The position numbers and the translations under genes are program-made. From positions 62,001 to 126,000 of the forward strand of contig NZ_FYEK01000003.1 of NCBI RefSeq assembly GCF_900187885.1: 64,000 nt of DNA, read 5' to 3'. Positions 29,455-35,067 of this stretch are shown here, piece after piece. Source of the DNA: Thermoflexus hugenholtzii JAD2 (GTDB lineage Bacteria > Chloroflexota > Anaerolineae > Thermoflexales > Thermoflexaceae). The notes beneath the pieces are model-generated. The model was given only the letters and a program-made list of their open reading frames with translations, ran no database searches and was not told the DNA's origin. Positions within the stretch are counted from its first letter, which is position 1. Each line of letters starts with the position of its first letter.

Positions 29455-30189
29455 ATGGAAGAAAACGGCGCCCTATGGCTCACCATCAAGGATCTGCCGG
29501 AGGAGGAACGACCCCGGGAGCGGCTGCTGCAACACGGTCCGGCTGCGCTATCCGCGGCGGAACTGCTGGCGATCCTGCTGCGCACCGGACGGCGCGGGGA
29601 GAACGCCCTGCAGCTGGCCCATCGCATCCTGCAGCACTGCGAGGGATTGAGCGGGCTGGGGCGGATCCCAGCCCATGAGCTGGCCCGGATCCCGGGGGTT
29701 GGCCTGGTGAAGGCCGCCCAGATCCAGGCTGCGCTGGAGCTGGGCCGGCGCGTCGCCGCCGCCGCTCCGGAGGAGCGCCCTCTCGTTCGCTCCGCGCGTG
29801 AGGCTTATATGTTGCTGGCGGACATGGCGGACCTGGAGCAGGAAACCCTACGGACCATCTTGCTGGACACCCGGGGGCGGGTGGTGGCGATCCCGACAAT
29901 CTATGTAGGGAACGTGAACACCACCCTCGTGCGGCCGGCGGAGGTGTTTCGGGAGGCCATCCGGCGCAACGCGGTCTCCATGATCGTGGCCCACAATCAC
30001 CCCTCCGGAGATCCGGAGCCGTCCCCGGAGGATGTCGCGCTGACGCGAGATTTGATCGCGGCCGGACAGCTGCTGGGGATCCGGGTGCTGGACCATTTAA
30101 TCATTGGGCGGGGCCGGTATACCAGCCTGCGAGAGCGGGGCCTGTCCTTCGCCACCCCATCCTTCTCCCAGCTCGCTCCGAGGACCTGA
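29455..30189 (+). CDS. radC: RadC family JAB/MPN protein
   Basis: 244 residues, ATG 29455 behind GGGGGGAG. N-terminal UPF0758 region IKDLPEEERPRERLLQHG, helix-hairpin-helix (ARIPGVGLVKAAQIQAALELGRR), and the JAMM metalloprotease-like motif HNHPSGDPEPSPEDVALTRDL near residue 180, followed by LDHLIIGRGRYTSLRERG. Once linked to DNA repair and recombination, but its true role is unresolved; relatives travel with mobile and defence islands. Lies immediately upstream of the CRISPR leader. Confidence 0.92.
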   Translation: MEENGALWLTIKDLPEEERPRERLLQHGPAALSAAELLAILLRTGRRGENALQLAHRILQHCEGLSGLGRIPAHELARIPGVGLVKAAQIQAALELGRRVAAAAPEERPLVRSAREAYMLLADMADLEQETLRTILLDTRGRVVAIPTIYVGNVNTTLVRPAEVFREAIRRNAVSMIVAHNHPSGDPEPSPEDVALTRDLIAAGQLLGIRVLDHLIIGRGRYTSLRERGLSFATPSFSQLAPRT

Positions 30190-30270: not shown

Positions 30271-30435
30271 CTTATAAAATGAACTCTTGGAATTGACCTT
30301 TTCTCCCTATATCCGGAATAGGATACATTTATTTGTGGCCGAAGCGATCCTTTCAGAGGAACAAGAAGGCCTTTTCTGGAAAAGGCTTCCGCGGACCCCC
30401 CTTCGTCCTCTGGCGCATGGAGGAACCCGAACCCC

Positions 30436-30464
30436 TTGACAACCAACGCGTCCTGTGTTATATT
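30436..30464 (+). promoter_or_regulatory. CRISPR leader promoter
   Basis: TTGACA at 30436-30441, 17-base spacer, TATATT at 30459-30464: almost perfect sigma-70 consensus. Predicted transcription start is near 30471, some 60 bases before the first repeat, so it should drive the precursor crRNA across the array in the plus direction. A pyrimidine/CT-repeat stretch (30494-30515) lies between promoter and first repeat. Confidence 0.85.
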
Positions 30465-30533
30465 CATGGCGAACCGGATGCAGGAAAGGGTAGCTCTCTC
30501 TCTCTTCTCTCTCTCACCACCTGAAATCGCAGG

Positions 30534-33500
30534 GCCTCAATCGAACCAGCGTGGGATTGAAACGGCGGCGGGCGGCCTCCTCGAGGGTCATGACGAACCA
30601 GCCTCAATCGAACCAGCGTGGGATTGAAACTGCCGCCAGGGCTTTCGTCGCCATGATAGCCATAGCCGCCTCAATCGAACCAGCGTGGGATTGAAACTTG
30701 TGGATGAGGCGGAGTACATCTCAGACGAGGTCATCGCCTCAATCGAACCAGCGTGGGATTGAAACCGTAGAGCAGCCAGGCCCAGAGTTGTTGGAAGCCG
30801 GGAGGCCTCAATCGAACCAGCGTGGGATTGAAACATCGCTACCCCGCGTGGCCATATGGCCGTCCCGATCCGCCTCAATCGAACCAGCGTGGGATTGAAA
30901 CTAGATTTTCCAGAGTGACGGAGGAGGATTCGCCGTGCGGCCTCAATCGAACCAGCGTGGGATTGAAACGATGGACGCATTGCGGCCTTCGAAGCACCGG
31001 TGTGGCGCCTCAATCGAACCAGCGTGGGATTGAAACGGCTAAGCGCATTTGAAATCCCGGGTTGAGATCCAAAGCCTCAATCGAACCAGCGTGGGATTGA
31101 AACCATACGGTTTATTACTCTTATACTGCAACGTAAACACGCCTCAATCGAACCAGCGTGGGATTGAAACTAAAAGTGATTTCATCCATCTTTTCGCCTC
31201 CCTTTTTGCCTCAATCGAACCAGCGTGGGATTGAAACAAGAATCGCTGGAGTGTCAGCCACAATGGCGGTCTTCGCCTCAATCGAACCAGCGTGGGATTG
31301 AAACCGAAGGGGAGCGCCGCCGCCGGCGCTCCCGGAAGGCGGGCCTCAATCGAACCAGCGTGGGATTGAAACCCTTCAGGATGGCCTGGCCGTTCGCGCC
31401 ATCGACGAAAGCCTCAATCGAACCAGCGTGGGATTGAAACAACATGAAGCGATCGAAACTGGTAAATGCGGACCCCAGGCCTCAATCGAACCAGCGTGGG
31501 ATTGAAACCACTGTAGGACCACGGCCCATCTGGCTTGAACTCCACGCCTCAATCGAACCAGCGTGGGATTGAAACCTCATACACATCCAAGACGCCATCA
31601 ACTTCGTGATCTGCCTCAATCGAACCAGCGTGGGATTGAAACTCTGCTCCAAGAGAGGAGGGCAATTCGAAAGCCATCGGCCTCAATCGAACCAGCGTGG
31701 GATTGAAACTACGGCCTCGAGAGCATCTCCTAAGGCCGCAAAAGCGGGCCTCAATCGAACCAGCGTGGGATTGAAACAGATTTAGCCCGGCCTCCCCGGC
31801 CGGGCTTACTCCCCGCCTCAATCGAACCAGCGTGGGATTGAAACCGCACCTTTTCTCGGAGGCCCTCGAGGCCGTCCAACGCCTCAATCGAACCAGCGTG
31901 GGATTGAAACCGACATCGGCGCAGATGCGAGAAGGACCCAAGGCGCGGGCCTCAATCGAACCAGCGTGGGATTGAAACATTGATTGATGATCAGGCAAAT
32001 GCCGCACCCAAGGTCGCCTCAATCGAACCAGCGTGGGATTGAAACCCCCCCAAGGGACCTGGCGATGATGGGGGCCAGGGCGCGCCTCAATCGAACCAGC
32101 GTGGGATTGAAACCGCGCCATAGGCGGCCGCCTGCTGGGCGGCCGCGGCGCCTCAATCGAACCAGCGTGGGATTGAAACTCGGGACGTGCAAGCACATCG
32201 AGATGGTGCGCCTGCAGCCTCAATCGAACCAGCGTGGGATTGAAACCCGCCTCGGGGTCCTCAGTGGACTGAGGCGCGGCCGGGCCTCAATCGAACCAGC
32301 GTGGGATTGAAACCCACCCCGAATGACCCGCTCTCCCCAGAGCGGGTCGCAGTGCCTCAATCGAACCAGCGTGGGATTGAAACTCGAACAGCGGAAAGGA
32401 GGTCGGCAAGTCATATACTTGGCCTCAATCGAACCAGCGTGGGATTGAAACAGAAAGGGGATCGAGGACTGGTCCAGCCACCACCAATGCCTCAATCGAA
32501 CCAGCGTGGGATTGAAACAGCCCCACCAGGCGGGGAAACAAGCGGAGCCCTGGGGAGCCTCAATCGAACCAGCGTGGGATTGAAACGCCGTCCCGGCCGC
32601 TCTGGAGCCGATCTCCGAGCCAAGCCTCAATCGAACCAGCGTGGGATTGAAACGGGAGAGCCTGCGGACCAGCTCCCGCAGGAGGTCGAGAGCCTCAATC
32701 GAACCAGCGTGGGATTGAAACTCGATACGCGGAGACCACCGGAAGCGCGTCCTCTCGGGCCTCAATCGAACCAGCGTGGGATTGAAACCACGCCGCCCTC
32801 TTTAGTCCCCGAGTCGCCATCCTCGGCCTCAATCGAACCAGCGTGGGATTGAAACGCGATCAGCTTGGGGCGGCCAGATCGGGTTGTTCCAAGCCTCAAT
32901 CGAACCAGCGTGGGATTGAAACTCCCCAGATAGACGCGCGTGCCGCTCGTCCCGGGCTCGCCTCAATCGAACCAGCGTGGGATTGAAACCGAACACGCCG
33001 CCGCCACCGCCGCCGCCGGCGGCGATGCCTCAATCGAACCAGCGTGGGATTGAAACCCCCAGGCGAACACCAGCGGGCCTCGGGCGAGGATCTCGCCTCA
33101 ATCGAACCAGCGTGGGATTGAAACACGCCTCCTCCGGGCTCGGATCCAGAGGAGACAGGGTGCCTCAATCGAACCAGCGTGGGATTGAAACACGTTTGGG
33201 CCGCTCGCGCCCTCCAGCCCGCGGCGGCCTCAATCGAACCAGCGTGGGATTGAAACCCTTCGCCGGGTGGCTGCTGGAGCGGCCGTCGGCGGGCCTCAAT
33301 CGAACCAGCGTGGGATTGAAACAAAAATTCGGCGGGCCTTTTCTGTTTCCATACCGGCGGCCTCAATCGAACCAGCGTGGGATTGAAACGGGCCAGGGCG
33401 GTCTCCACCGCCCGGGTCGCCCGCAGCCTCAATCGAACCAGCGTGGGATTGAAACTCCATTACTTCTGCTCGCCTTCTTCGCCCGGGAGCTTGCCTCAAT

Positions 33501-35067
33501 CGAACCAGCGTGGGATTGAAACCTGACTTCGCGTCACCGTGTGTTCCGGCCCGCGTCCGCCTCAATCGAACCAGCGTGGGATTGAAACTGGAAGACCCTT
33601 GAGCGATGGCTCCTCCGTTTGTCCGCGCCTCAATCGAACCAGCGTGGGATTGAAACTTCTTTGATTTGCCGTGGGATTATGCCCCCTCGAAATGCCTCAA
33701 TCGAACCAGCGTGGGATTGAAACGCGCATCGAATTGTCACCGTGCCGCCCACGCCAGGGGGCCTCAATCGAACCAGCGTGGGATTGAAACTGAAGCGGTA
33801 TGAATGGTCCCAGTTGGTCGAGCTGGGCGCCTCAATCGAACCAGCGTGGGATTGAAACCAAAACGACGATGACTGCCTCGCTTGTGTTGGGTTCGGCCTC
33901 AATCGAACCAGCGTGGGATTGAAACCGGCGCCACCAGCGGCGCATTGCCCTGCCCCACCAGGGCCTCAATCGAACCAGCGTGGGATTGAAACATGTTTAC
34001 CTCCCAGGCTGGATTTCACAAATAAAAAGGCCTCAATCGAACCAGCGTGGGATTGAAACATTCCTCGCACGCCTTGTGGGCTTCGAGGAGTTCATTGCCT
34101 CAATCGAACCAGCGTGGGATTGAAACCAAATCGCCCTTTGAGCAAAAAGCGGGCGGGTCGAGGCCTCAATCGAACCAGCGTGGGATTGAAACACTGGTCT
34201 TCGCCAATGGGGCGAGATGGGGAATTTTCGGCCTCAATCGAACCAGCGTGGGATTGAAACGCCTTCGACGAAGACCTCGACCTCCTGCGGGAGCTGGTCT
34301 GGCCTCAATCGAACCAGCGTGGGATTGAAACCGGCCTGCGCCAGCCGCGACAGGCGCAGGCGGTATTCGCCTCAATCGAACCAGCGTGGGATTGAAACTC
34401 GCAGCGATGGAATAAGGAAGTCCCCAAATGCGGCTTGCCTCAATCGAACCAGCGTGGGATTGAAACGAATATCGATATCCCCAGCGAGAGGGATGCTAAC
34501 GTGGCCTCAATCGAACCAGCGTGGGATTGAAACCCTTGCGGGGATCGATGTTGTTGGCCCACAGGCAGGCCTCAATCGAACCAGCGTGGGATTGAAACAT
34601 TCAATCCCTCCTCCTCCAGCACCCGATCCCAATCGGCCTCAATCGAACCAGCGTGGGATTGAAACCTCGTTCGAGCCATTCGCCGGCCAACGAAATCCGG
34701 CCAGCCTCAATCGAACCAGCGTGGGATTGAAACCGTAGATCTCGATATAGCCCCAGGACCCCAGGCGAGCCTCAATCGAACCAGCGTGGGATTGAAACAA
34801 CAGGTAGGAGATGACCTTGTCCACCGCCAGGCGGATGGCCTCAATCGAACCAGCGTGGGATTGAAACGGTCAATGGGTGATCCTCCCCATATCGCTCCGC
34901 CACGCCTCAATCGAACCAGGGTGGGATTGAAACTATGTTGTTCAATCCGATCCCCACACAAACCCATCGACCTCAATCGAACCAGCGTGGGATTGAAACC
35001 GAGACCAGCAACACCGGCATGCTCGAGGTCCGCATGGGCCTCAATCGAACCAGCGTGGGATTGAAAC
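30534..35067 (+). CRISPR. CRISPR array, 68 repeats of 30 bases, 67 spacers
   Basis: The repeat starts GCCTCAATCG, continues AACCAGCGTG and ends GGATTGAAAC. Spacers are 35-41 bases, mostly 37. TCAATC (repeat positions 4-9) pairs with GATTGA (22-27), with CCA/TGG inside, so the transcript can fold. The end ATTGAAAC is the 5' handle typical of type I and type III crRNAs. Repeats are identical until the 3' end: repeat 66 (34904) has G for C at position 17, repeat 67 (34970) has A for G at position 1, and a GCCTCAA fragment remains at 35091. This fixes the leader at the 5' side. No cas gene is in the window, so it must use Cas proteins encoded elsewhere. Confidence 0.98.

What the first reader, a model, noticed from the sequence alone, without database searches (positions are those of the whole stretch)
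32667..34299. Two spacers share 24 identical bases on opposite strands
Spacer 32 (bases 32667-32690) and the reverse complement of spacer 56 (34276-34299) are identical over 24 bases, then differ on both sides. Spacer 56 can be read as A-F-D-E-D-L-D-L-L-R-E-L-V; the core encodes LDLLRELV. Two independent acquisitions from opposite strands of one conserved element gene indicate a recurring invader with variants, targeted in a strand-independent way. They are 24 units apart in the array, so acquired at different times.
Basis: seen in the sequence. Interest (0 to 1): 0.7.

Follow-up and report, generated by a model that had tools for sequence, protein, structure and literature searches.

The report
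Two CRISPR spacers from one target
A hot-spring bacterium has filed two overlapping snippets of what is probably the same unknown invader, read from opposite DNA strands, in its CRISPR memory; this is real but ordinary, because the same thing happens repeatedly across its genus and has been reported in other hot-spring microbes.

Summary
Spacer 32 and the reverse complement of spacer 56 share 24 bases; no other pair in the 67-spacer array exceeds 14, and 300 shuffles never exceeded 15. "Then differ on both sides" undersells it: the spacers overlap by only 27 bases, 25 of them identical (two transitions), so together they tile about 52 bp of one target.
The array is one of two (67 and 84 spacers) with an identical repeat in a Thermoflexus genome. 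It most likely serves a separate type I-B cas locus.
Among 928 spacers with this repeat from five Thermoflexus genomes, 37 pairs overlap end to end (shuffles 0.02): 15 exact repeats, 15 same-strand offset or variant pairs and 7 opposite-strand pairs. Flanks read from partner spacers give a CCN PAM (15 of 20), a known type I-B PAM. So independent acquisition from variants of recurring elements is supported, and strand indifference is normal for type I.
Not supported: the LDLLRELV protein. All six frames are open, and degenerate searches gave only chance hits. No target was found in IMG/VR, phages, plasmids, GTDB genomes or the host, so the invader is unidentified. Held et al. (PMC2946923) described this signature in Sulfolobus in 2010.

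The parts
30534..35067 (+). CRISPR array A: 68 repeats of GCCTCAATCGAACCAGCGTGGGATTGAAAC, 67 spacers of 35-41 nt. Leader on the left, decayed repeats on the right (34904, 34970), so spacer 1 is probably the youngest
   Evidence: orientation from the 3' ATTGAAAC handle, the decayed right end and the conserved left leader
30380..30533 (+). leader; 97% identical to the leader of array B (C44) and about 76% to two leaders in a sister species
   Evidence: sequence printed
32654..32691 (+). spacer 32 (38 nt): GGGAGAGCCTGCGGACCAGCTCCCGCAGGAGGTCGAGA
32667..32690 (+). 24-nt core shared with spacer 56
34261..34301 (+). spacer 56 (41 nt): GCCTTCGACGAAGACCTCGACCTCCTGCGGGAGCTGGTCTG
34276..34299 (-). 24-nt core in the opposite orientation; flanked on each side by one transition relative to spacer 32
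31778..31814 (+). spacer 19: 16 of 18 end overlap, same strand, with spacer 18 of array B (weaker second example in this genome)

Best explanation
[quoted passage not shown] Cas1-Cas2 (with Cas4) picks protospacers next to CCN on either strand and inserts them at the leader end; spacer 56 came first and 32 later. The crRNAs then guide Cascade/Cas3 to double-stranded DNA, so the strand does not matter. The overlap needs no special mechanism: sampling a limited pool of recurring elements with hundreds of spacers makes some overlaps inevitable. Shown: the match, its rarity under shuffling, the genus-wide pattern, the CCN flank motif and the cas loci. Inferred: that the target is a mobile element, that these arrays belong to the I-B locus, and the order of acquisition.
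For: Core unique and far beyond chance. Overlap 25/27 with two transitions, as expected of variants. 37 end-to-end overlapping pairs among 928 Thermoflexus spacers against a null mean of 0.02: 15 are exact repeats, partly array-segment duplications; the remaining 22 are 12 same-strand offset, 3 same-protospacer variants and 7 opposite-strand. 5' flanks read from partner spacers are CCN in 15 of 20 (background CC 9.2%, p about 3e-12). CCN is a catalogued I-B PAM (PMC8482600). Type I-B locus with Cas8b, 7, 5, 3, 4, 1, 2 on contig C71. The type III-A locus on C27 has its own, different repeat.
Against: No protospacer was found anywhere, so the shared origin is inferred from the spacers alone. Only 27 nt are seen twice; a short sequence dispersed among different elements would look the same. 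The arrays are not next to the I-B cas genes.
Confidence: 0.8

Rival explanations
1. Primed adaptation: spacer 56 imperfectly recognised a later variant of its target, Cas3 was recruited, and spacer 32 was taken from the immediate neighbourhood, so the overlap is causal rather than coincidental. This is a special case of the best explanation, so the two confidences overlap.
For: The younger spacer lies on the opposite strand and carries two transitions relative to the older one. Primed or interference-driven acquisition is known in type I systems, and strand-independent in type I-F (paper titles and references).
Against: 23 other spacers lie between them, and none of them overlaps the pair. 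Both mismatches (positions 15 and 40 of spacer 56) are outside the PAM-proximal seed. The number of overlaps in the genus can be explained by plain repeated sampling.
Confidence: 0.25
2. Dispersed short repeat: both spacers hit a 27-nt or longer sequence (for example a hairpin or an element end) that occurs in unrelated replicons or in both orientations of one replicon.
For: The core folds into an imperfect hairpin (14/24 self-complementary, MFE -7.0 kcal/mol), and spacer 32 contains a 7-bp perfect stem. Hairpins are enriched among these spacers.
Against: If the palindrome caused the match, the same-strand alignment would also be good; it is 17/38. The exact core is absent from the host, IMG/VR and GTDB genomes.
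Confidence: 0.12
3. Assembly or recombination artefact: one spacer fragment duplicated and inverted.
For: Segmental duplications of whole repeat-spacer units do occur in a sister genome (G208a.194-196 = 197-199).
Against: The shared piece is an internal, inverted part of two spacers with correct repeats on both sides and two base differences. Unit duplications are direct and include repeats.
Confidence: 0.02
4. Chance match within GC-rich codon usage (a common helix pattern).
For: Spacers are GC-rich; degenerate LDLLRELV patterns are common in IMG/VR.
Against: 300 shuffles keeping dinucleotides never exceeded a 15-nt shared word. Near matches to the core (3 or fewer mismatches) were found in 51 of 400 genomes of the phylum, nearly all at 3 mismatches, and no exact one outside this array.
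Confidence: 0.03

Closest known systems
Offset matching spacer pairs in Sulfolobus islandicus (Held et al. 2010, PMC2946923)
   Same: [quoted passage not shown] 41 pairs, 37 of them offset, one shown with two SNPs.
   Different: There nearly all between divergent strains of one population; here within one array and between arrays of single genomes, in a bacterium with type I-B, with the strand recorded.
Partially overlapping spacers in Thermus (PMC6452258)
   Same: Seven pairs of shared spacers acquired independently from one locus in hot-spring bacteria.
   Different: There in arrays of different CRISPR types and/or partially overlapping. The Thermus I-B PAM was given as GGTN, whereas CCN is inferred here.
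Type I-B CRISPR-Cas (CCN PAM group, e.g. Clostridium in PMC8482600)
   Same: Full I-B effector and acquisition gene set and CCN PAM.
   Different: Cas genes and arrays A and B lie on different contigs; two CARF genes stand in front of cas8b.

Membership tests
Independently acquired overlapping spacers (PMC2946923) | at least 88% identity over at least 17 nt between spacers in different array contexts | tested here: met
   25/27 = 93%, 24 units apart
Independently acquired overlapping spacers (PMC2946923) | offset, not identical, so not a copied unit | tested here: met
   opposite strands, offset 11 nt, two transitions
Independently acquired overlapping spacers (PMC2946923) | both protospacers found in one mobile element | tested here: inconclusive
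   no target in any collection searched
Type I-B CRISPR-Cas | Cas8b-Cas7-Cas5-Cas3 effector genes with Cas4-Cas1-Cas2 | tested here: met
   contig C71, PADLOC Cas8b 2.9e-124, Cas7b, Cas5, Cas3b, Cas4b, Cas1b, Cas2b
Type I-B CRISPR-Cas | array physically linked to the I-B cas genes | tested here: not met
   arrays on C3 and C44, cas genes on C71; no repeat in the stretch read around the cas genes. Assignment rests on the CCN PAM and on the III-A locus having its own repeat
Type I-B CRISPR-Cas | 5' PAM of a known I-B kind | tested here: met
   CCN in 15 of 20 inferred flanks; CCN listed for I-B. Not observable for this pair itself
Primed adaptation | new spacers clustered around a pre-existing, mismatched protospacer | not testable with these tools
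   needs the target genome
   only chance hits; all six frames open

The most novel reading that the evidence does not exclude
In this genus, overlaps between spacers are frequent enough that arrays alone, without any known virus, yield the PAM, short pieces of target sequence and a rough size of the invader pool, and opposite-strand overlaps such as 32/56 may mark primed re-sampling of escape variants.
Probability: 0.25. Interest if true: 0.4.

Novelty: new member of a known kind. Interest (0 to 1): 0.22.

Why it matters
It is direct evidence, from the array alone, that a Thermoflexus lineage met variants of the same unsequenced element repeatedly. Together with the other overlapping pairs in the genus it gives a CCN PAM for a type I-B system whose viruses are unknown. 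The phenomenon itself was published in 2010, so the value is mainly practical: bait sequences and a PAM for finding Thermoflexus viruses.

Tried and rejected
Exact core against IMG/VR and GTDB genome contigs: no hit. Core with up to 3 mismatches in 400 genomes of the phylum: background only; the sister-genome hit (L003) is in ordinary-looking chromosomal sequence. Degenerate codon patterns of two frames and of extended versions in IMG/VR: 52 hits without flank similarity, then 0, 1 and 1 chance hits. Spacers singly and joined against phages, and the 52-nt tile against plasmids: nothing convincing; a Micromonospora plasmid integrase hit at E = 2e-3 covered 71% at 89% and was looked up but not pursued (the joined phage queries held spacers 1-56 of array A and 30 of array B, not all). 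The 67 spacers against 41 relatives: no convincing protospacer; this search scores only a few candidates per genome. Degenerate patterns of three other repeatedly sampled targets (B45/B57, G208a.213/G208b.39, G208a.29/G400a.12) in IMG/VR: none. Palindrome as cause of the opposite-strand match: rejected.

Full report
Observation. The array at 30534-35067 has 68 copies of GCCTCAATCGAACCAGCGTGGGATTGAAAC and 67 spacers of 35-41 nt. Spacer 32 (32654-32691) and spacer 56 (34261-34301) share GACCAGCTCCCGCAGGAGGTCGAG in opposite orientation, at the coordinates given. No other pair in the array shares more than 14 nt, and 300 dinucleotide-preserving shuffles of the 67 spacers gave at most 15. The core occurs nowhere else in the window with up to 3 mismatches nor in the rest of the 3.2-Mb genome.

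What the overlap is. Aligned end to end, the spacers overlap over 27 nt with 25 identities; the two differences are transitions, one beside each end of the core. Beyond that each spacer runs on alone, so they tile about 52 bp: GCCTTCGACGAAGAYCTCGACCTCCTGCGGGAGCTGGTCYGCAGGCTCTCCC. The match is not due to self-complementarity: the same-strand alignment is only 17/38.

Host and machinery. The repeat occurs exactly in Ca. Thermoflexus tengchongensis, Ca. T. japonica and three Thermoflexus MAGs, and these match the genomes listed as same-genus relatives, so the window is from Thermoflexus. That it is T. hugenholtzii itself is my guess only, because the collection may leave out the window's own record. 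The genome carries a second array with the same repeat and a 97% identical leader (array B, contig C44, 84 spacers). A type I-B locus (Cas8b, Cas7, Cas5, Cas3, Cas4, Cas1, Cas2) lies on C71, with no copy of the repeat in the stretch read. A type III-A locus with Csx1, Cas1 and Cas6 lies on C27 next to its own 37-nt repeat array. A second Cas6 is on C22. The I-B system is therefore the likely user of arrays A and B.

Is the pair special? I collected 928 spacers with this repeat from five genomes. End-to-end overlapping pairs number 37 against a shuffle mean of 0.02: 15 exact repeats (several are segment duplications in one sister genome), 12 same-strand offset pairs, 3 same-protospacer variants and 7 opposite-strand pairs, 32/56 among them. 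In the window's own genome other pairs exist: B45 = B57 (37 against 36 nt), B64/B66 (28/33, offset 4) and the weaker A19/B18 (16/18). Overlaps are frequent within a genome and rare between genomes (2 pairs in 321,603 comparisons), as expected if each lineage samples its own small pool of elements.

PAM. Where a spacer begins inside its partner, the partner shows the flank. CC stands at -3, -2 in 15 of 20 such flanks against a background of 9.2%. Some rows share a spacer, so the p value of 3e-12 is optimistic. CCN is listed for type I-B (PMC8482600). It also agrees with the array orientation, leader on the left. For 32/56 neither 5' end is covered by the partner, so their own PAMs cannot be read.

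The protein claim. AFDEDLDLLRELV is one of six open frames of the tile; 17.6% of 52-mers from the window have six open frames. In the antisense frame GEPADQLPQEVEVFVEG one difference is third-position and the other could be a conservative first-position change, so it is at least as good a candidate. Degenerate searches gave 52 hits for the short pattern, none similar in the flanks, and chance hits or none for the longer ones. The tile could equally be non-coding; spacer 32 contains a 7-bp stem, and hairpins are enriched among these spacers.

Mechanism. Best supported is repeated independent acquisition next to CCN on either strand from variants of one element, with interference by Cascade/Cas3 indifferent to strand. 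Priming by spacer 56 is possible but not needed; 23 intervening spacers, none overlapping the pair, do not favour it.

Known ground. Held et al. (PMC2946923) described 41 such pairs in Sulfolobus, mostly offset, with an example carrying two SNPs, and drew the same conclusion. Thermus has them too (PMC6452258). The finding is a sound new instance of a published pattern, with an unidentified target.

Noticed in passing
L106 (G000:C44:117569-123080): Second array with the same repeat and leader, 84 spacers. Its spacers 45 and 57 are identical except that one is a base longer, suggesting the same protospacer was taken twice rather than copied.
   Followed up: partly
928 Thermoflexus spacers (loci L106, L124-L132 and window): PAM CCN can be inferred from spacer-spacer overlaps alone, without any known virus.
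   Followed up: yes
spacers of window array and L106: Hairpins with perfect 7-bp stems are enriched in spacers: 46 of 928 (5.0%) against 15 in shuffles and 2.1% of window 37-mers; strongest in this genome (13 of 151 against 3.9).
   Followed up: partly
L124-L127 (sister genome G208): Blocks of three consecutive repeat-spacer units duplicated (b13-15 = b16-18, a194-196 = a197-199, a225-227 = a233-235).
   Followed up: no
L111:10028-12182: Two CARF-domain genes directly upstream of cas8b in the type I-B locus; one matches a CARF5 model at 4e-153.
   Followed up: no
window 29455-30189: radC (JAB domain) ends about 340 bp upstream of the first repeat.
   Followed up: no
G208a.29 (L124) / G400a.12 (L131): Spacers from two Thermoflexus species share 27 of 27 overlapping bases: a target conserved across lineages, not found in IMG/VR as a degenerate codon pattern.
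   Followed up: partly
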